Assembly: GCA_019683805.1 (NCBI GenBank)
Contig: JADGHQ010000026.1
Location: forward strand, 1-32,242
Length of the DNA: 32,242 nt
From: Thermoleophilaceae bacterium
Lineage (GTDB): Bacteria; Actinomycetota; Thermoleophilia; Solirubrobacterales; Thermoleophilaceae
Reading direction: 5' to 3'
Made by a program: the position numbers and the translations under genes. Of this stretch, positions 1,147 through 31,833 are shown piece by piece. Within the stretch, counting starts at the first letter, position 1. The number at the start of each line of letters is the position of its first letter. The notes beneath the pieces are model-generated. The model worked only from the letters and a program-made list of their open reading frames with translations, searched no databases and had not been told where the DNA came from.

Positions 1147-3471
1147 ATGGCCGATGCCATCGAGCACGTCGAGCTGGCGATCACCGGCATGACGTGCGCG
1201 TCGTGCGCGAACCGGATCGAGCGCAGGCTCAACAAGCTCGACGGCGTAAGCGCGTCAGTCAACTACGCCACCGAGCGGGCGACGGTCGACTTCGACCCCG
1301 TCGCCGTCGCCCCCGAGCAGCTCGTCGAGGCCGTCGAGGCCGCGGGCTACCAGGCCGCGCTGCCGTCCGCCGAGCCGCAGGGCCCGGCGCACGGCGAGGA
1401 CGCGGAGCGCGACGAGACGGCGCCGCTGCGCCGCCGGCTGCTCGTCAGCGCCCTGCTGTCGGTGCCGGTGCTGCTGCTCGCGATGATCCCGGCGCTCCAG
1501 TTCGACAACTGGCAGTGGCTCTCGCTCCAGCTCGCCACCCCCGTGGTGCTCTGGGGCGCCTGGCCCTTCCACCGCGCCGCCTGGGCGAACGCCAGGCACG
1601 GCACCGCGACGATGGACACCCTGATCTCGGTCGGCGTGCTGGCCGCCTGGCTGTGGTCGCTCTACGCGCTGTTCCTCGGCGACGCCGGCATCACCGGGAT
1701 GCGGATGGCGTTCGACATCGTTCCGAAAGCGGGCGGCGGCGACGAGATCTACCTCGAGACGGCCTCGGTCGTGACGACGTTCATCCTCGCCGGCCGCTAC
1801 TTCGAGGCGCGCGCCAAGCGCCGCGCCGGCGCGGCGCTCGAGGCGCTGCTCGAGCTCGGCGCCAAGGACGTCTCGGTCCTCGACGCCGACGGCGCCGAGC
1901 GCCGCATCCCGATCGAGCAGCTCGCGGTGGGCGACCGCTTCGTCGTGCGCCCGGGCGAGAAGGTCGCGACCGACGGCATCGTCGAGGAGGGCACGAGCGC
2001 CGTCGACCAGTCGCTTCTGACGGGCGAGTCCGTGCCGGTCGAGAAGCAGCCCGGCGACGAGGTGGCGGGCGCGACGATCAACGCCGGCGGCCGCCTCGTC
2101 GTGCGCGCGACGAGGGTCGGGGCCGACACCGCGCTCGCGCAAATCGCGCGGCTCGTGACCGAGGCCCAGACCGGCAAGGCGCCGGTGCAGCGCCTCGCCG
2201 ACCGCATCTCGGGCGTCTTCGTCCCGATCGTGATCGGCCTCTCGCTCGCGACGCTCGGGTTCTGGATCGGGGCGGGCGAGGACATCGACTTCGCTTTCAC
2301 GGCGGCGGTGGCGGTGCTCATCATCGCCTGCCCGTGCGCGCTCGGGCTCGCCACGCCGACGGCGCTGCTCGTGGGCACAGGCCGCGGCGCCCAGCTCGGC
2401 CTGCTGATCAAGGGCCCGGAGATCCTCGAGTCGACGCGCAAGGTCGACACGATCGTGCTCGACAAGACGGGCACCGTCACGACCGGCGGGATGGCGCTCG
2501 TGGACGTCGCGCTCGCAGGCGGCGCGGAGCGCGACGAGGCTCTGCGGCTCGCCGGCGGGCTGGAGGCGGCCTCCGAGCATCCGATCGCCCGGGCGGTCGC
2601 CCGCGCGGCCACGGAGGAGCTCGGACGGCTGCCGGCCGTCGAGGGCTTCGCCAGCCGCGAGGGCCTGGGCGTGGAGGGCATGGTCGACGGCCACGCGGTG
2701 CAGGTCGGCCGCCCCTCGCTGATCGCCGAGCGGGGCCTGCGGATCCCCGCCGAGCTCGAGCGGGCGCTGCGGGCCGCGGAGGAGCGCGGCCGGACCGCGG
2801 TCGTCGCCGCCTGGGACGGTGCCGTCCGCGCCGTGCTCGTCGTCGCCGACACCGTCAAGCCGACCTCCGCGGAGGCCGTCGCCTCACTCAGGGAACTGGG
2901 CCTGCGCCCGGTCCTCCTGACCGGCGACAACGAGACGACCGCGCGCGCGGTCGCCGCCGAGGTCGGGATCGACGAGGTGATCGCCGAGGTCCTGCCCTCC
3001 GACAAGGCCGCGGTGGTCAGGCGCCTCCAGGACGAGGGCCGGGTCGTCGCGATGGTCGGGGACGGCGTCAACGACGCGCCCGCGCTCGCGCAAGCCGACC
3101 TCGGGCTCGCGATCGGGACCGGCACCGACGTCGCCATCGAGGCGAGCGACCTCACCCTGGTCACCGGCGACCTGCGCGCGGCCGCCGACGCCATCCGGCT
3201 CTCGCGGGCGACGCTGCGGACGATCAAGCAGAACCTCGCCTGGGCGTTCGGCTACAACGTCGCGGCTCTGCCGCTCGCCGCCGCCGGCCTGCTCAACCCC
3301 GTCATCGCCGGAGCGGCGATGGCCTTCTCGAGCGTCTCGGTCGTCACCAACGCCCTGCGCCTGCGGCGCTTCCGGGCCGCGCACGGCTCGGCGCGTCCGG
3401 GGGTCGGGCCGGCCGCTGCCGCCGACACGGGTCGCGACCGTGCGCACCCGGCGATGGAGATGGGATCGTGA
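1147..3471 (+). CDS. copA: Cu(I)-exporting P1B-type ATPase CopA
   Basis: This 774-residue heavy-metal P-type ATPase pumps Cu(I) out of the cytoplasm at the expense of ATP. It has one N-terminal HMA domain (GMTCASC, 14-20), the TGES actuator loop, the membrane ion site CPC (residues 395-397), the phosphorylation site DKTGT (Asp439), an SEHP nucleotide-binding motif and the hinge [10 protein letters not shown]. The last two helices carry Y-N (GYNVAAL) and M-x-x-S-S (MAFSS), the P1B-1 signature for monovalent copper rather than Zn/Cd. It sits in the middle of the copper operon, 2 bp after the His/Met-rich protein and overlapping the TetR gene (stop TGA inside GTGA at 3468-3471). Length is normal for a one-HMA CopA. 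Confidence 0.95.
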
Positions 3472-9175: not shown

Positions 9176-9897
9176 CACGCAACCGGCACCGTACCCGAGT
9201 GGATAGCGATGATGCCTCCCGCGGTGATCACGTAGCGCACCTCCGCGAGGCCCACCACCGCGAGCTCGGCCGCGAGCTCGCGCGGCCCGGGGAAGCGCCG
9301 CACGGAGCTCGGGAGGTAGCTGTAGGCCTCCGGGTCGCCCGCCGCCCGGCCGAGCAGCGGCACGACCCGGTCGAACCAGAGGCCGAAGAACCACGACAGC
9401 GGCGGCCGCTGGGGCGTCGTGATCTCGAGCACGACGACGCGCCCGCCCGGACGCACCACGCGCGCCATCTCGGCGAGCCCGCGCGAGAGGTCGGCGAAGT
9501 TGCGCGCGCCGAAGCCGACCGTCGCGGCGTCGAACGAGTCGTCCTCGTAAGGCAGCTCCAGGGCGTTCCCCCACTCGAACCGGACCTCGCGCGACTTCGC
9601 GCGCGCCAGCTCGAGCATCCGCTCCGAGAAGTCCGAGCCGACCACCTCGCCCGCCGGGCCAACGCGCCGCTTCAGGGCGAGCGCGAGATCGCCCGTCCCG
9701 GTGGCCACGTCCAGCGCCCGCCCGCCCGGCTCGAGGCGGGCGAGGTCCGCCGCCCGCTCGCGCCAGCGCTGGTGCATGCCGGCGGTCATGACCGAGTTCA
9801 TCAGGTCGTAGACCGAGGCGATGCGGTCGAACATCGCCCGCACCTGCTGCTCGGGGAGCGTCCCGCTGCTCGGCTGGCCGCTCGCCGCGCGCGTCAT
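9175..9897 (-). CDS. menG: Demethylmenaquinone methyltransferase (MenG/UbiE)
   Basis: This 240-residue class I SAM-dependent methyltransferase adds the ring methyl in the last step of menaquinone synthesis. The N-terminal family signature YDLMNSVMTAGMHQRWR (30-46), SAM motif I LDVATGTGDLA (62-72), GFGARNFADLSRGL and RPGGRVVVLEI are all present. Because the rest of the operon encodes a menaquinol-type bc complex, menaquinone rather than ubiquinone is the likely substrate. It starts 16 bp after the qcrC stop and overlaps the prenyl synthase start. Confidence 0.95.
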   Translation of the reverse strand: MTRAASGQPSSGTLPEQQVRAMFDRIASVYDLMNSVMTAGMHQRWRERAADLARLEPGGRALDVATGTGDLALALKRRVGPAGEVVGSDFSERMLELARAKSREVRFEWGNALELPYEDDSFDAATVGFGARNFADLSRGLAEMARVVRPGGRVVVLEITTPQRPPLSWFFGLWFDRVVPLLGRAAGDPEAYSYLPSSVRRFPGPRELAAELAVVGLAEVRYVITAGGIIAIHSGTVPVA

Positions 9898-9913
9898 GGC
9901 CCGGTGCGAGCCG

Positions 9914-10624
9914 CTAGCGCAGCGACGAGAGGAAGTTCACGAGCTCGTTGAACTTCTGCGGGTCCTGCTGCTTGAGGGCGGCGAACGACGGCATCGGCGC
10001 AGTCGGGTTGATCAGGGTTCGCGCGATCGCCTGCCGCGGCAGCCGCGAGCCGATGTGCGTGAGATCCGGCCCCGGCCCGGCGTTGCCCGCCTCGCCGATC
10101 TTGTGGCAGCCCTGGCAGCCCGAGGACGCGGCGACGAGCTTGCCCGCCTCGTACCGCGGCGGCACCTTGAGCGAGATCTGCCCCGGCGCCTCGGCGAGCG
10201 CGCCCTCGATCGTCAGGTACGCCATCGCCGCGATCACGGTGATGCCCGCCGTCGTGGCGATCGGGCGGCGCAGCGGGTTGCGCTCCGGGCCGCGATCGAT
10301 GAACGGCAGCAGGATCAGCAGGATCATGCAGACCGTGGGCACACCGACCGTCGCGATGAAGACGATCGACGGCGGCTTGATGATCCGCAGCAGCTCGAAG
10401 AGGAAGAAGAAGTACCACTCCGGCCGGGGCACGTAGCTCGTGGTCGTCGGGTCGGCCTTCGGCCCGAGCTCGGCGCCGAGGATCACGGCCATGAGGATGA
10501 TCACTGCCAGCACGATGCAGGCCATGACCGAGTCCTTCAGCACCGCGTAGGGGAAGAACGGCTTCCCCTCGCTCTTCATGATCGAGTATTCGCGGAGGTA
10601 CTGCTCCTTCTGGCGCGCGTCCAT
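9914..10624 (-). CDS. qcrC: Menaquinol:cytochrome c reductase cytochrome b subunit IV / cytochrome c fusion
   Basis: This is a 236-residue protein in two parts. Residues 25-140 form the C-terminal half of cytochrome b (subunit IV of b6f-like complexes), with three transmembrane helices and the quinol-site motif PRPEWYF (67-73). Residues 155-236 form a class I cytochrome c domain with CQGCH (170-174) and a probable axial Met in APMPSF (Met211). A b/c fusion of this sort is known from the menaquinol complexes of Bacillus (QcrC). It contrasts with the di-heme QcrC of classical Actinobacteria. It begins 4 bp after qcrB ends. There is one heme c site only. Confidence 0.93.
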   Translation of the reverse strand: MDARQKEQYLREYSIMKSEGKPFFPYAVLKDSVMACIVLAVIILMAVILGAELGPKADPTTTSYVPRPEWYFFFLFELLRIIKPPSIVFIATVGVPTVCMILLILLPFIDRGPERNPLRRPIATTAGITVIAAMAYLTIEGALAEAPGQISLKVPPRYEAGKLVAASSGCQGCHKIGEAGNAGPGPDLTHIGSRLPRQAIARTLINPTAPMPSFAALKQQDPQKFNELVNFLSSLR

Positions 10625-10628
10625 GCGG

Positions 10629-11474
10629 CTAGATCTCCTCCCGCGCGAGCTCGCGCCGCTTCTCGGCCTTGAGCCACGGCGGCGCGGTCGTGCCGAGCTT
10701 GACGACGAGGTACAGGTGCGCTCCGATCAGCGCCGCGATCAGGCCAGGGATCAGCAGCATGTGGATCGCGTAGAAGCGGCTCAGCGTGGTGGCCGTGAAC
10801 TCGGGGCCGGCGCGCAGGAAGTCGGCCAGGTAGGGCCCGAGCAGCGGGCCGGACGCGTTGATGTTCACGCCCACGACCGTGGCCCAGAAGGAGCGCTGGT
10901 CGAAGGGCAGCAGGTAACCCGTGAACGCCATCGCCATCGTGAGGATGAGCAGCACCACGCCGACGACCCAGTTGAGCTCGCGGGGGTACTTGTAGGCGCC
11001 GAAGAAGAAGGTCCTGCCCATGTGGAGGAAGATCAGGACGACCATCACGGTCGCGCCCCAGCGGTGCATCCCGCGCACCAGCTCGCCGAGCCACACCTCG
11101 TTGATGATGTGCCGGACCGAGTTGTAGGCGTTCGACGGCGACGGGTCGTAGTACATCGCCAGGAACACCCCGGTGACCGCCTGCGACAGGAACGCGAACA
11201 GCGTCGCCGAGCCCAGCGTGTAGTACCAGTTGGTGCCGCGCGGGGTCTTGCGGTACAGCATCGCCCGCAGGAACGGGCTGGCGCCGGTGCGCTCGTCGAG
11301 CCAGCCGACGACCGAGATCGGCACCTCCGCGGCCTGCTCGAGCGCCTCCTGACGGCGCAGCTCCTTGTCCGCCGCGGCAGCCGCGGCAGCGCGCCCGTTG
11401 CCCGCGGGGCGGGAGCCCGGGCGCGGCGGACGGCGCTTGAGCGCATTCGGGACCGGGGGCTTGGGGATTCTCAT
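10629..11474 (-). CDS. qcrB: Menaquinol:cytochrome c reductase cytochrome b6-type subunit
   Basis: This 281-residue protein is the N-terminal four-helix half of cytochrome b, carrying the two b hemes. The putative ligands are His137 and His151 on one helix and His238 and His253 on another. The 14 residues between the second pair are the b6-type spacing. HRWGA, FFGAYKYPRELNW and GYLLPFDQRSFWA are family motifs. Residues 1-50 are a Pro/Arg/Ala-rich extension not needed for the core fold. At the place where Bacillus and chloroplast proteins have Y-C-[LF]-G for the covalent heme ci/cn, this protein reads YYTLG, so that Cys seems absent. Its start overlaps the qcrA stop (ATGA). Confidence 0.95.
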   Translation of the reverse strand: MRIPKPPVPNALKRRPPRPGSRPAGNGRAAAAAAADKELRRQEALEQAAEVPISVVGWLDERTGASPFLRAMLYRKTPRGTNWYYTLGSATLFAFLSQAVTGVFLAMYYDPSPSNAYNSVRHIINEVWLGELVRGMHRWGATVMVVLIFLHMGRTFFFGAYKYPRELNWVVGVVLLILTMAMAFTGYLLPFDQRSFWATVVGVNINASGPLLGPYLADFLRAGPEFTATTLSRFYAIHMLLIPGLIAALIGAHLYLVVKLGTTAPPWLKAEKRRELAREEI

Positions 11475-12145
11475 GTGGTCGGCCTCGAGGGGTAGAGGAT
11501 CTTCCAGAGGCCGTCGACGTGGTTCGACGGGTCGCGCGGCTTGAAGCGGCGCAGGTGGGAGTCGACCGAGAAGCGCTTGCCGACCTCCACGCGGCCGTTG
11601 CGGACGCGCGTGTAGAAGCGGTCCAGCGGGCGCACGGGCGGACCGCCCACGACCTTGCCCTCGGCGTCGTAGACGCCGCCGTGGCAGGGGCAGATGAAGC
11701 GCTGGGACGCCTGCACGTAGCGGACCGGGCAGCCGAGGTGCATGCAGCGCGTCGAGATCGCCACGTAGGGCAGCGGGGCGCCCTTGTCGCTCGGGCTCTG
11801 GTCCTGGGGCGTCGCCTTGCGGACGTAGATCGTGGTCTTGCCGACCTCGCCGCCGACCTCCGGCACGAGGGTGATCACCTTCGGCACGTAGGTCTCCTCG
11901 TTGAAGTCGGACTCCGGCCCGACGTCGCGCCAGAAGTCCTCCACGTCGTCCCGGAACACCGGGCCGAGCGCGAAGCCGAGCGTGGGGAGGCCGAACGCCG
12001 CGGTGGCGATGCCCCCGGCCGCGAGCGCGCCGCCCTCGAACAGGCGGCGGCGGGTGATCGTCTCGCCCTCGAAGGCGCCAGGAGTGCCGCGGTCGAGGGT
12101 GTAGGGGGACTTCCGCTTACGGTTTTTCTTCGAGTTCTCTGCCAA
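11471..12145 (-). CDS. qcrA: Rieske iron-sulfur subunit of the bc complex
   Basis: The 224-residue protein carries the [2Fe-2S] Rieske centre that takes electrons from menaquinol. Motifs CMHLGC (134-139) and CPCHGG (152-157) supply ligands Cys134, His136, Cys152 and His155, with Cys139/Cys154 for the disulfide. A twin-arginine segment TRRRLFEGG (31-39) precedes one hydrophobic helix (about 38-60), the usual Tat-dependent signal anchor, and tatA/tatC lie in the same window. It has a single N-terminal helix, unlike the three-helix QcrA of mycobacteria. It is the first gene of the qcrABC-menG-prenyl synthase run. Confidence 0.96.
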   Translation of the reverse strand: MAENSKKNRKRKSPYTLDRGTPGAFEGETITRRRLFEGGALAAGGIATAAFGLPTLGFALGPVFRDDVEDFWRDVGPESDFNEETYVPKVITLVPEVGGEVGKTTIYVRKATPQDQSPSDKGAPLPYVAISTRCMHLGCPVRYVQASQRFICPCHGGVYDAEGKVVGGPPVRPLDRFYTRVRNGRVEVGKRFSVDSHLRRFKPRDPSNHVDGLWKILYPSRPTT

Positions 12146-27742: not shown

Positions 27743-29650
27743 CTAGACGCGCGCCGCCGCGTGTCTCCGCGCCGCCTCGCGCCGGGGCGCCGAGCCGGGT
27801 GCCGTCTCGATCACGATCCGGCAGGGCCGGCGCGCGAGCAGGTAGGAGGCCGTCGGCCCGAGCGCGCGCTCGTCCGCAGGGGCGTGCTCGGTGGCGAGGT
27901 AGATGACGTCGGCGCCGAGCCGCTGCGCTTCCTCGACGAGCGCGGCGCCCGGATTGCGGGTGCGGATGAGGCGTGTCCGCACGCTGATCCCGTGCCGCCT
28001 GGCGCGCACGCCGGCCGCCTCGAGCACCTCGCGCGCCAGCCGCTCTTCGTCCTCCATCCCGGAGTCGAGCGAGAGCTGGTCGGGCACGCGGATGACGTAG
28101 ACGCACTGCACGGTCGCGCCCTCTCCGATCAGCTTCGACGCGCGCCGCATCGCGTCGCCGCTCACGTCGTAGCCGAAGATCGGCACGATCGCGGAGCCGT
28201 ATTCGAGCGGAACGAACCCCTCGGGCGCGGGCGGGCGCTCGATGCGGCAGTGCTCGTTGAGCCCGACGCCCTGGGCTCGCCTGTAGAGCACGTAGCCGGC
28301 CATTCCGACGGCGAGCCAGCCGAAGCCCACGTAGCGGGTGGATGGGTGCAGCACCACCACCGATACCCAGGTGGCGAGCGTGCCGACGCCGCCGACGACG
28401 GCCGTCAGCGGGATCGGCCGGCCGCGCACGCGAACGTTCCAGGGCGCCCGGTACGGCCGCTCGCGGTCGGGTTGGCGGAGACGCAGGACCACCACCGCCG
28501 CGTGGGCGACCGTGAAGGACAGCATCGCGCCGAAGCTGTAGAGGTTGCCCAGGAAGTCGTTCTTCCCTGGCAGCAGCAGGACGGCCGCCAGCGCGGCGAA
28601 GAACACGATCGTGAACGAGGGCGTGCGGAAGCGCGGGTGCAGGCGCGCGAAGACGCTGGGCAGCTGGCGGTGCTCGGCGAGCGACCACGACAGCCGCGAG
28701 ATGCCGATGATGCCCGCGTTCGTGGCGATGATCAGGATCGTGGCGGCGAGCAGCGCCACGTAGTAGGAGAGCGCCTTCGTCATCCCCGCGCCGAGATGCA
28801 GGGCGTGCACGATGCCGAGCACCGGGTCGCTCTGGTACGTCGTGCCGAGCGCCGTCGAGAAGTGGCCGTCGGCGCCCTTCCTGACCGGCAGCGCGGAGAG
28901 GGCGACGGTCGACATGCCCGCGTAGATGCCGAGCACGCCGAGCAGCAGCAGGTTCACGGTGCGCGGCACGTCGCGGCCTGGGTGGCGCGCCTCCTCGGCC
29001 ATGTTCGAAACCGTCTCGATCCCGGTGTAGGCGAGCATCGAGATCGAGAGCGCGAACAGGAGCTGGCTGAACGTGGGCGCCGTGCCGAGATGGACCTGGC
29101 CCACCAGCAGGGAGGGGTGCAGCACGAGCGCCGCGCCGAGCGCGACGAGCGCGACCTGCGTGAAGAGGTCGGCGACCGCGAGCCCGATGTTCAGCTTGGC
29201 CGACTCGCTCAGCCCGCGGATGTTCACGGCGGCGAGCGCAGCGATCACGACCATGCCGCCCGCGATGTCGCCCGGGTTGTGCTTCAAGGCGGGCCAGAAC
29301 GCGCCGAGGTAGTGCGGCACGAAGAAGGCCGAGATCGCGATCGTGATGATGTAGTCCAGCGAGAGCGCCCAGCCGGCGAAGAAGGAGGCGAGCTCGTTGC
29401 CCGCGTGCCTCGCGAACGCGGAGGAGCCGCCGGCCTCGGGGAACATCGAGGCGGCCTCCGCGTACGTCTTCGCCGTGAGCGCGAAGAGGCCGCCCGCCAG
29501 CATGAACACGAGCGGTGTGAGCCCGAGCGCGTGCACCGCCACGAGCCCGAGCGCGTAGTAGATCGAGGAGCCGAGGTTGCCGTAAGCGGTGGCGAACATC
29601 CCCGGCACTCCCACCGAGCGCCGCAGCCCCCGCTGGACCGGACGCGCCAT
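27743..29650 (-). CDS. APC-superfamily permease fused to a universal stress protein domain (KimA-like possible)
   Basis: This is a 635-residue protein. Residues 15-455 form an APC transporter with about twelve helices (AYGNLGSSIYYALGL near the start; LSLDYIITIAISA with Asp99; MLAYTGIETVSN with Thr209/Glu212). Residues 485-617 form a USP-like domain (AIVPIFGYDVSGDAMRRA, GADVIYLATEH, LLARRPCRIVI). This layout is shared with the potassium importer KimA (YdaO family). From memory of that family, the Asp in DYI[LI]T and the T-G-[VI]-E segment match, but an Asp in the first helix seems to be Asn here. It follows a KdpD/KdpE-like pair, so potassium transport is a reasonable inference. Amino-acid transport is the alternative. 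ATG 29650 was chosen. Confidence 0.85.
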   Translation of the reverse strand: MARPVQRGLRRSVGVPGMFATAYGNLGSSIYYALGLVAVHALGLTPLVFMLAGGLFALTAKTYAEAASMFPEAGGSSAFARHAGNELASFFAGWALSLDYIITIAISAFFVPHYLGAFWPALKHNPGDIAGGMVVIAALAAVNIRGLSESAKLNIGLAVADLFTQVALVALGAALVLHPSLLVGQVHLGTAPTFSQLLFALSISMLAYTGIETVSNMAEEARHPGRDVPRTVNLLLLGVLGIYAGMSTVALSALPVRKGADGHFSTALGTTYQSDPVLGIVHALHLGAGMTKALSYYVALLAATILIIATNAGIIGISRLSWSLAEHRQLPSVFARLHPRFRTPSFTIVFFAALAAVLLLPGKNDFLGNLYSFGAMLSFTVAHAAVVVLRLRQPDRERPYRAPWNVRVRGRPIPLTAVVGGVGTLATWVSVVVLHPSTRYVGFGWLAVGMAGYVLYRRAQGVGLNEHCRIERPPAPEGFVPLEYGSAIVPIFGYDVSGDAMRRASKLIGEGATVQCVYVIRVPDQLSLDSGMEDEERLAREVLEAAGVRARRHGISVRTRLIRTRNPGAALVEEAQRLGADVIYLATEHAPADERALGPTASYLLARRPCRIVIETAPGSAPRREAARRHAAARV

Positions 29651-29680
29651 GCGCGCGACGCTAGATCCGCGCGCGTAAAG

Positions 29681-29702
29681 CCCGCGCAAAGGATCGCGCG
29701 GG
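29681..29702 (-). promoter_or_regulatory. Hairpin in the leader of the APC/USP permease gene
   Basis: CCCGCGC (29681-29687) and GCGCGGG (29696-29702) form a perfect 7-bp stem with an 8-nt loop, 30 bp upstream of the permease start, in the 105-bp gap after the response regulator. In minus-strand RNA it is followed by CUUUACG. It could be an attenuator or mRNA-stability element. Confidence 0.35.
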
Positions 29703-29755
29703 CGCATACAGATTTCGTGAAGCCCGGCCGAGCGGGGCTCGAGGCGAGAGCCGCC

Positions 29756-30433
29756 TCAGCCCGCGAAGCGGTAGCCGACCCCGGTGTCGGTCCTGATCAG
29801 CTGTGGCCTACCCGGGCGCTCGATCTTCCGTCGCAGGTTCGCGACGTGCACGCGCAGCACCTGCGTGTCGTGCTCGTAGCCCGGCCCCCAGACGTCGGTG
29901 AGCAGCTTGCGATGCGTCAGGAGCCGGCCGCGGTTGCAGGCCAGGACCCGGAGCAGCTCGAACTCCGTCTTGGTCAGGCGCACCGGCTCGCCGTCGCGGG
30001 TCACCTCGTGCGCCGCGAGGTCGATCACGAGCCCGTCGGCCTCGATCGCGGGCTCGCTCTCGCCCCCCGCGGCACGGCGCAGCACGGCGCGCAGCCGCGC
30101 GACGAGCTCCTCGGGGCCGAAGGGCTTGGTCACGTAGTCGTCGGCGCCCGCGTTCAGCGCGCGCACCTTCTCCCTCTCCTCGCCGACCGCCGAGAGCACG
30201 ATGATCGGGAGCTCGCTCCACTCGCGGATCCGGCGGCAGACGTCCACGCCGTCGCCGTCGGGGAGGACGAGGTCCACGATCGCGGCACGGGGCGTGTGCA
30301 CGGCGGCCGCGTCGAGCGCCTCCTCCGCGGTCGCGGCCAGGACGGGGTCGAAGCCCGCGTCGCGCAGGATCACGCGCAGCGCGCGCAGTATCTGCGGCTC
30401 GTCGTCACAGACCAGGACCCTGTCGCCGCTCAT
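29756..30433 (-). CDS. KdpE-like response regulator (OmpR family)
   Basis: The 225-residue regulator has a receiver domain with the acidic pair Asp10/Asp11, phospho-acceptor Asp54 (IVDLVLPDGDG), LSA and Lys103 (VTKPF). A winged-helix DNA-binding domain follows, with LTKTEFELLRVLACNRGRLLTHR and VHVANLRRKIE ending RTDTGVGYRF. The order and wing resemble KdpE, which responds to potassium limitation through KdpD. It overlaps the upstream sensor kinase (ATGA at 30430-30433) and precedes the APC/USP permease by 105 bp. Target genes are not shown by sequence, and no kdpFABC is in the window. Confidence 0.92.
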   Translation of the reverse strand: MSGDRVLVCDDEPQILRALRVILRDAGFDPVLAATAEEALDAAAVHTPRAAIVDLVLPDGDGVDVCRRIREWSELPIIVLSAVGEEREKVRALNAGADDYVTKPFGPEELVARLRAVLRRAAGGESEPAIEADGLVIDLAAHEVTRDGEPVRLTKTEFELLRVLACNRGRLLTHRKLLTDVWGPGYEHDTQVLRVHVANLRRKIERPGRPQLIRTDTGVGYRFAG

Positions 30434-31833
30434 GCGGCGCTCCCCGCCCTCGCGGGCCGGGCGCCACGCCCGGGATCGCGGGACGCGACGGGCAGCCGGA
30501 TCGTGAAGCGCGCTCCCCTGCCCTCGCACGCGTCGACCCGTATCCGGCCCCCGTTGGCCTCGACGAACCCGCGGGCGATGGCGAGGCCGAGCCCGGCCCC
30601 GCCGCCTCCGCTCGCGCGGAAGAACGGCTCGAAGATCCGCTCGCGGTCGTCCGGGTCGATGCCCGGACCGCTGTCGGCCACGCGAACCTCGACGAAGGCG
30701 CCGTCGCGCACGGTGGACACGCGCACCGGCTTGCCGTTCGAGTGCCTGACCGCGTTGTCGACCAGGTTCGCGATCGCCCGCTCGATCTGCATCGCGTCGG
30801 CGTGGACGAGCGGCAGGCCCGGCTCGAGCTCGAGCCGCACGTCGCCCGGCGGATCGCCGAGCGTGCCGACCGCGCTCTCCACCAGCTCGTCCAGCGCGCA
30901 CCAGTCGGGCTGCGCCGGCGCCGACCCCGCCTCGAGGCGCGAGAGCTCGAGCAGGTTCTCCACCAGGCGGCCGAGGCGCTCGCTCTCCGAGCGGATCACG
31001 GCGATCAGCTCGTCGCGCTCGCCGCCTTCGAGCGTGCGCGAGCCGAGCCCCGAGCCGGCCGCGCGGATCGCGGTGATCGGCGAGCGCAGGTCGTGCGAGA
31101 CTGCGCGCAGGAGCGCGGTCTTCATGTCGTCGCTGCGACGCAGCGCCCGGGTCTCGACAAGCTGCTCCTCGAGCTGCTCGCGCCTGATCGCCGCCGCGAC
31201 GAGCGCGGCGAGCGCCGGCACGAGCCGCTCCCGCACGCGCTCGAGATCCGCCTTCGGCGTCGCGCGCGGGACGAGCAGCGTGCCCACGCGGCGGCCGGAC
31301 TCCACCAGCGGCACGGCGATTCGCTCCAGGTCCGAGTCCACCCAGCCGAGCCGCAGCTCGGCCCCGCTCATGCCGAGCGCCGACGCGATCAGGTCAGCCG
31401 CCTCGGTGAGGCGCTCGGCAGCGCTCGTGCCGGACAGGATCGAGACCGCCAGCCGAGCGGTGATGTCCGCCTCGCGCCTGCGCGCCTCGGCCTCCTCGGC
31501 TCTCGCACGCGCCGAGTGGGCCAGCGTACTGGTGACCAGGGCGGCGACGAAGTACACCAGGAGCGCGACCCAGTTCTCCGGGTCCGCGATCGTGAAGCGG
31601 CCCGTCGGCGGGATGTGGAACCAGTTGAACGCCGCAGCGCTCGCGAGAGCGGTGACCACGGCGAGCCGCAGGCCCCAGTAGGTCGAGATGAGCAGGACGG
31701 GCAGGAGGTAGAGCACGCCCGTGGAGAGCACCGGCATGACCTCGCGGAGCCCGTAGATCACCGCGGTGACGACGGCCACGGAGAGCGCGGCGACGGCCGC
31801 GCCTGTTCGTTGCCCCTGAGCGGGCGGGCGCAT
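30430..31833 (-). CDS. KdpD-like sensor histidine kinase lacking the N-terminal KdpD/USP domains
   Basis: The 467-residue kinase has, in order, a four-helix DUF4118 membrane domain (about 10-105, including FNWFHIPPTGRFTIADPENWVAL typical of KdpD), a GAF-like region (about 125-215), a coiled linker and a HisKA box SHDLRSPITAIRAA (His247). The catalytic domain follows with the N box (ANLVDNAVRHS), G1 (VADSGPGIDPDDR), an F box and G2 (GGGGAGLGLAI). Full KdpD starts with a 350-residue KdpD-USP region that is absent here. ATG 31833 is used; GTG 31839 would add two residues. It overlaps the response regulator start. Confidence 0.92.
   Translation of the reverse strand: MRPPAQGQRTGAAVAALSVAVVTAVIYGLREVMPVLSTGVLYLLPVLLISTYWGLRLAVVTALASAAAFNWFHIPPTGRFTIADPENWVALLVYFVAALVTSTLAHSARARAEEAEARRREADITARLAVSILSGTSAAERLTEAADLIASALGMSGAELRLGWVDSDLERIAVPLVESGRRVGTLLVPRATPKADLERVRERLVPALAALVAAAIRREQLEEQLVETRALRRSDDMKTALLRAVSHDLRSPITAIRAAGSGLGSRTLEGGERDELIAVIRSESERLGRLVENLLELSRLEAGSAPAQPDWCALDELVESAVGTLGDPPGDVRLELEPGLPLVHADAMQIERAIANLVDNAVRHSNGKPVRVSTVRDGAFVEVRVADSGPGIDPDDRERIFEPFFRASGGGGAGLGLAIARGFVEANGGRIRVDACEGRGARFTIRLPVASRDPGRGARPARAGSAA

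What the first reader, a model, noticed from the sequence alone, without database searches (positions are those of the whole stretch)
27743..31833. KdpD-like kinase, KdpE-like regulator and APC-USP permease: possible potassium uptake module without KdpFABC
The kinase has the KdpD membrane domain but not its N-terminal KdpD/USP part, whereas a USP domain is attached to the permease just downstream. The USP input may thus have been relocated to the transporter. The permease layout (APC + USP) is that of KimA-type potassium importers. A regulator/transporter trio of this form, if confirmed, would be a compact potassium-sensing system.
Basis: inference. Interest (0 to 1): 0.52.

Follow-up and report, generated by a model that had tools for sequence, protein, structure and literature searches.

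The report
Potassium-sensor genes rewired to a permease
In a relative of soil actinobacteria, the gene pair that usually switches on a potassium pump sits in front of, and by its DNA binding sites appears to control, a different kind of transporter, so this may be how cells without the usual potassium importers take up potassium.

Summary
The trio is real: DUF4118 kinase (30430-31833), OmpR-type regulator (29756-30433) and APC+USP permease (27743-29650; start corrected), all on the minus strand. In this order genuine kdp operons read kinase-regulator-kdpA-kdpC-kdpB-"KdpD-N": KdpD is split, and the short kinase is its normal form there. The window carries that regulator pair in front of the permease instead of kdpACB. 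A tandem operator learned only from permease promoters (CTTnACG boxes, 11-bp register, two sites 32 bp apart, a -10-like hexamer 10 bp downstream) recurs upstream of 13 of 14 kdp operons and of permeases lying far from any regulator pair. The genome lacks KdpA, TrkH/KtrB and Kup matches; its two other APC-USP permeases sit beside two TrkA genes. Relocation of the USP domain from KdpD is not supported. Strict KimA membership is not met: the essential Asp36 position is Asn in 40 of 40 relatives, and amino-acid APCs score above KimA by sequence. Potassium transport itself is inferred, not shown.

The parts
30430..31833 (-). Short KdpD-type sensor kinase: DUF4118 membrane domain, HisKA, HATPase_c, without the KdpD N-terminal/USP part
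   Evidence: Pfam; its HisKA-HATPase part groups with kinases of genuine kdp operons; up to 60% identical to the kdp-operon kinase in L077
29756..30433 (-). KdpE-type OmpR-family response regulator
   Evidence: Pfam; 66-74% identical to regulators of 10 kdp operons; tree
29705..29722 (-). Operator element A, CTTCACGAAATCTGTATG (two 7-bp boxes at 11-bp register)
   Evidence: Conserved pair found upstream of permease and kdp promoters
29674..29691 (-). Operator element B, CTTTGCGCGGGCTTTACG
   Evidence: Same; 31 bp from A here, 32 bp in 28 of the other 29 sites
29658..29663 (-). -10-like hexamer TAGCGT, exactly 10 bp downstream of element B and 7 bp before the ATG (possibly a leaderless transcript)
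   Evidence: nAnnnT at this position in 29 of 30 sites
27743..29650 (-). APC-fold permease with C-terminal universal-stress-protein domain; proposed potassium importer
   Evidence: Pfam; AlphaFold2 model pLDDT 84.2 matches KimA over membrane and cytoplasmic domains

Best explanation
The cluster is a split-type KdpDE two-component system whose target is an APC-USP permease rather than the KdpFABC pump. Steps: (1) the DUF4118 kinase senses low potassium or a linked signal (inferred from the kdp operons of the same order); (2) the phosphorylated regulator binds the tandem operator, which takes the place of a -35 box 10 bp upstream of the -10 hexamer (operator shown by comparison, binding inferred); (3) the permease is made and imports potassium, probably proton-coupled through the invariant Glu212 (inferred from KimA Glu233), with the USP domain as a cytoplasmic brake or ligand sensor (inferred). 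In related genomes that keep kdp, the same operator lies upstream of kdp and, in one genus, also of a distant permease, so both belong to one predicted KdpE regulon. The permease family has a TrkA-linked branch that may supply basal potassium uptake.
For: Domains. Kdp operons of the order are kinase-regulator-KdpA-KdpC-KdpB-KdpD-N (Pfam on L073). Trees put the window's regulator and kinase among kdp-operon ones, nearest by path G037 and G014 of the same family for the regulator, G014 for the kinase. Regulator pair beside the permease in 12 of 24 genomes: KdpA in 3 of those 12 against 11 of the 12 with a lone permease (Fisher p 0.003). Operator scan of 66 loci, 905,398 bases per strand: the 30 best pairs are 9 training sites, 6 further permease promoters, 13 kdp promoters and 2 others in kdp clusters. 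E. coli KdpE half-sites TTTATA and TTTACA also lie at 11-bp register (PMC3264566, passages). No KdpA, TrkH or Kup match in the genome. 14 of 14 order genomes without the permease family have at least one of these; 60 of 133 with strong matches have none. Own paralogues sit beside two TrkA genes; in 20 further loci, 18 have both TrkA and 19 at least one. KimA Asp117/Tyr118/Thr121/Ser125 align with D99/Y100/T103/S107.
Against: No transport or expression data. KimA Asp36, essential in KimA (PMC6994465, section 9), is Asn in all 40 relatives. By sequence profile KimA ranks 26th of 37 solved structures, below amino-acid APCs, and the P1 paralogue does not reach KimA at E 0.001. Tree support for the kdp-containing group is moderate (84/97 and 87/74), and some permease-linked regulators form a separate set. 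Operator not found in 3 of 13 regulator-linked permease loci or 8 of 13 lone ones. The genome is 95% complete and encodes one K+-channel-like protein with TTTGFGD. The 151 genomes are related; 8 of the 14 without the family are one genus.
Confidence: 0.66

Rival explanations
1. The regulator pair is KdpDE-like and responds to potassium, but the permease imports an amino acid or other osmolyte (for example glutamate as counter-ion) that the cell needs when potassium is scarce.
For: Pfam/NCBIfam and PDB sequence matches are to amino-acid APCs first; KimA Asp36 is replaced by Asn in 40 of 40.
Against: Paralogues stand beside at least one TrkA gene in 19 of 20 loci; 60 of 133 genomes with strong matches have no TrkH, KdpA or Kup; TM3 keeps KimA's D/Y/T/S and TM6 has the spacing T-x2-E-x3-N.
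Confidence: 0.22
2. The permease acts mainly as part of the sensor (as PstSCAB-PhoU does for PhoR), its USP domain or flux informing the kinase that lacks KdpD-N, with transport secondary.
For: Kinase lacks the N-terminal input part, the genome has no KdpD-N over the cut-off, and pair and permease are adjacent in 12 of 24 genomes.
Against: A kdp-operon kinase also lacks the part; in 12 of 24 genomes no pair lies beside the permease.
Confidence: 0.07
3. Chance neighbours: an ordinary OmpR-type system next to an unrelated amino-acid permease.
For: OmpR-type pairs and APC permeases are both common (general knowledge); NCBIfam cut-offs for KdpD and KdpE are not reached.
Against: Genuine kdp-operon regulators of the order also miss those cut-offs; conserved adjacency and a shared operator.
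Confidence: 0.05

Closest known systems
KdpDE two-component system (E. coli type)
   Same: DUF4118 membrane domain, HisKA-HATPase kinase, OmpR-type regulator, operator of direct repeats at 11-bp register with TT at the start of each half-site (PMC3264566)
   Different: KdpD is split in this order and the N-terminal gene is missing here; two tandem operators 31-32 bp apart; target is a secondary permease, not KdpFABC
KimA of Bacillus subtilis (K+/H+ symporter, KUP family)
   Same: 12-TM APC fold plus cytoplasmic alpha/beta domain; top structural match; TM3 residues D117/Y118/T121/S125 kept
   Different: 17-18% identity; Asp36 replaced by Asn; no riboswitch found at the locus
CeoB/CeoC (TrkA pair) with adjacent Rv2690c in Mycobacterium tuberculosis
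   Same: TrkA gene beside another gene assigned to the Trk set (PMC12216072, passages); here two TrkA beside two APC-USP permeases
   Different: Homology of Rv2690c to these permeases is recalled, not tested; the window's own trio has no TrkA
Amino-acid APC transporters (CAT4, GkApcT, BasC, xCT)
   Same: Best sequence matches of the membrane part
   Different: The matches cover the membrane part only; the TM6 segment reads YTGIE here against YIGFD or YMGFG there; gene context here is potassium-related

Membership tests
KdpDE two-component system | Kinase with DUF4118, HisKA and HATPase_c domains, partnered with an OmpR-type regulator | tested here: met
KdpDE two-component system | KdpD N-terminal domain (PF02702) on the kinase (full-length E. 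coli form) | tested here: not met
   Absent and no match over cut-off in the genome. So it is not a full-length KdpD; the kinase of a genuine kdp operon of this order lacks it too and has it as a separate gene, which is why I file it under a split form only
KdpDE two-component system | NCBIfam equivalog scores for KdpE and KdpD | tested here: inconclusive
   205 of 325 and 164 of 1123 bits; three regulators and two kinases of genuine kdp operons of the order miss them too, at 191-225 and 178-186 bits
KdpDE two-component system | Groups by descent with regulators of kdp operons | tested here: met
   Nearest rows in both trees are kdp-operon regulators; support moderate
KdpDE two-component system | Shares the operator of kdp promoters | tested here: met
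KimA / KUP potassium importers | Asp36 in TM1 | tested here: not met
   Asn25 at the structurally offset position, 40 of 40 rows; read from range offsets, not from a printed residue alignment
KimA / KUP potassium importers | TM3 Asp117/Thr121/Ser125 | tested here: met
KimA / KUP potassium importers | TM6 Thr230/Glu233 | tested here: inconclusive
   T209/E212 invariant with the same spacing; no residue alignment to KimA obtained there
KimA / KUP potassium importers | Membrane domain followed by cytoplasmic alpha/beta domain in the KimA fold | tested here: met
   512-533 residues aligned, Z 38-42.5, although the two domains are not in the same relative placement (rmsd 16-17)
KimA / KUP potassium importers | K+ uptake activity | not testable with these tools
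   needs complementation or flux assay
Amino-acid transporters of the APC superfamily | Score over NCBIfam cut-off of a named amino-acid transporter family | tested here: not met
   best 137.6 of 556.8 bits (TIGR00909)

The most novel reading that the evidence does not exclude
APC-USP permeases of this kind are an unrecognised potassium-uptake family that carries the main potassium import of many Thermoleophilia: a TrkA-linked pair (P1-P2-TrkA-TrkA) works as a Trk system without TrkH, and a KdpE-controlled copy takes over the role of KdpFABC under potassium limitation. The same logic could name the missing membrane partner of orphan TrkA pairs such as CeoB/CeoC of mycobacteria.
Probability: 0.5. 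Interest if true: 0.76.

Novelty: new variant of a known kind. Interest (0 to 1): 0.58.

Why it matters
Bacteria need potassium uptake, yet this genome shows none of the three textbook importer families searched for. The cluster offers a testable answer and suggests that KdpE regulation extends from a P-type pump to a secondary permease. If the TrkA-linked paralogues are potassium carriers too, they suggest which membrane proteins work with orphan TrkA pairs in Actinobacteria; in M. tuberculosis the Trk system is described as two TrkA proteins (PMC13163235, start of abstract in listing).

Tried and rejected
USP relocation from KdpD to the permease: rejected. A c-di-AMP riboswitch at the locus: Rfam found only one tRNA in each of the two sources. 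Relatives on plasmids: 45 records, none covering 80% of the query, at most about 29% identity among the 40 listed, so not used. Spread over the phylum: the P1 paralogue was found in 15 of 296 genomes at E 1e-30, all in the same class. A residue alignment to KimA for TM1 and TM6 failed; TM3 succeeded. Operator in the TrkA-linked operons: no pair at or above 17.8 bits in L041-L045 or L121-L140. KdpDE descent of all permease-linked pairs: not claimed, as L057, L058, L081, L082 and L083 fall outside the kdp group in the regulator tree (L081 was not in the kinase tree) and L084 is a long branch.

Literature: searches listed no paper that I recognised as describing a KdpE-controlled APC-USP permease or an APC-TrkA potassium system; the library holds open-licence papers only. 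PMC6994465: outline and sections 7-9 read. PMC12216072, PMC6375644, PMC10117811 and PMC3264566: passages only. All others: search listings.

Full report
What is there. On the minus strand, 31833 to 27743, lie a sensor kinase (DUF4118, HisKA, HATPase_c), an OmpR-type response regulator and an AA_permease_2 + Usp permease. Kinase and regulator overlap by 4 bp. The permease most likely starts at ATG 29650, because the consensus of 40 relatives begins MAR there and the 57 bases before it hold promoter elements.

The kinase is not truncated by accident. I examined kdp operons in the same order. Ten held loci (L072-L075, L077-L080, L090, L091) have a kinase and a regulator upstream of kdpA. Eight of them continue with KdpC, KdpB and a separate KdpD N-terminal protein; L077 and L090 are cut by the end of the contig before that. 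In L073, Pfam confirms a DUF4118-HisKA-HATPase kinase without PF02702 and a separate PF02702 protein. KdpD is thus split in this order, and the window's kinase has the form seen in those operons. The window genome has no PF02702 match over the cut-off.

The regulator pair and kdp. Among 24 genomes with an orthologue of at least 57% identity, 12 have the pair (in G100, at a contig end, the regulator) beside the permease and 12 do not. KdpA is found in 3 of the first 12 and 11 of the second 12 (Fisher p 0.003; the genomes are related, so this is descriptive). One genome, G018, has the pair beside the permease (L057) and a kdp operon with no pair in the bases held (L076); in G066 pair, permease and kdp share one cluster (L060). 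Trees of 23 regulators and 21 kinases place the window's proteins in the group that holds all ten kdp-operon regulators; nearest by path are kdp regulators of the same family, G037 and G014. Support for that group is moderate, 84/97 and 87/74. Another set of permease-linked pairs (L057, L058, L081, L082, L083 in the regulator tree; the same without L081 in the kinase tree) lies outside it.

The operator. Upstream of the permease the window has CTTCACGAAATCTGTATG and, 31 bp on, CTTTGCGCGGGCTTTACG; each is two CTTnACG-like boxes at 11-bp register. Nine permease promoters gave two weight matrices; a scan of 66 loci (905,398 bases, both strands, distances 31-33) returned 36 distinct pairs above 12 bits. 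Loci covering the same stretches twice and short search loci were left out of the scan. The best 30 (17.8 bits or more) are the 9 training sites, 6 other permease promoters (L057, L046, L047, L048, L086, L087), 13 kdp promoters and 2 sites in kdp clusters of G060 and G142; the other six score 16.3 or less. Of 14 kdpA genes in the scanned loci the one miss is the first kdpA of L089, which has about 370 bases upstream. In 28 of 30 pairs the distance is 32 bp and in two it is 31. A hexamer nAnnnT begins exactly 10 bp after the second element in 29 of 30. The five lone permeases with the operator are all in genus g37, in genomes with a KdpA match, and have no regulator pair in the bases held; the operator is therefore not a by-product of standing behind the regulator gene. 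It is missing in L084, L060 and L088 among 13 pair-linked permeases and in 8 of 13 lone ones (L049-L055 and the short L004). E. [quoted passage not shown] That the boxes are bound by this regulator is inferred.

Potassium economy of the genome. G000 (2.56 Mb, 95% complete) has no KdpA, TrkH or Kup match; the controls rang in 5, 11 and 6 of 14 named genomes. It has one K+-channel-like protein with TTTGFGD. Over 151 genomes of the order, TrkH is found in 27, KdpA in 58 and Kup in 63, of which 61 over the cut-off. The permease family is found in 137 of 151 at E 1e-20. All 14 genomes without it have at least one of the three classical systems; 60 of 133 with a strong match have none, and of 4 with only weak matches 2 have none (Fisher p 0.0004 for 14 of 14 against 75 of 137). 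Eight of the 14 are one genus, so this is suggestive, not independent evidence.

The paralogues. The genome's two other family members are adjacent (L041, P1 7582-9468 and P2 about 9526-11604) and followed directly by two TrkA genes. The same P1-P2-TrkA-TrkA order is in L042-L045. In 20 further loci that I chose from the lists have both TrkA genes, one (L137) has one, and one (L121) has none in the bases held.

The permease. An AlphaFold2 model from 40 sequences has pLDDT 84.2, pTM 0.71. KimA entries head both structural lists, with alignments that cover membrane and cytoplasmic domains; amino-acid APCs follow closely over the membrane part with lower rmsd. By sequence, amino-acid APCs come first and KimA is 26th of 37. 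phmmer aligns TM3 of the permease with KimA so that D99, Y100, T103 and S107 equal KimA D117, Y118, T121 and S125. T209, E212 and N216 are present in 40 of 40 rows and have the spacing of KimA T230, E233 and N237, but no residue alignment was obtained for that part. At the place of KimA D36, read from the structural range offset, the family has Asn in 40 of 40 rows. In KimA D36N abolishes uptake (PMC6994465, section 9). So this is not a KimA in the strict sense; if it carries K+, the site differs.

Verdict. That the pair is a split KdpDE-type system and that permease and kdp share an operator is well supported. That the permease imports potassium is the most likely reading (about two in three), with an osmolyte or amino-acid importer under potassium control as the main rival.

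Noticed in passing
L041:7582-12767 (G000:C117) and L042-L045, L122-L136, L138-L140: Tandem APC-USP permeases directly followed by two TrkA genes, in an order where 124 of 151 genomes have no TrkH match: a possible Trk-like system without TrkH.
   Followed up: partly
L078:3189 (-) and L089:8061 (+): Two more copies of the operator pair upstream of a conserved ORF of about 190 codons of unknown function inside kdp clusters of G060 and G142.
   Followed up: partly
window 29648-29663: The -10-like hexamer ends 7 bp before the permease ATG, so the transcript may be leaderless.
   Followed up: no
L141:1051-1728 (G000:C47): A small K+-channel-like protein with a TTTGFGD filter motif, the only Ion_trans_2 match in the genome.
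   Followed up: no
L057 and L076 (G018): A kdp operon with no regulator pair nearby but with a strong operator pair, while the regulator pair sits beside the permease on another contig: a natural case for testing trans regulation.
   Followed up: partly
window 1147-3471 (+): Probably a metal-transporting P-type ATPase: its N-terminus has a GMTCASC motif, read from the sequence, and it matches KdpB weakly (33%).
   Followed up: no
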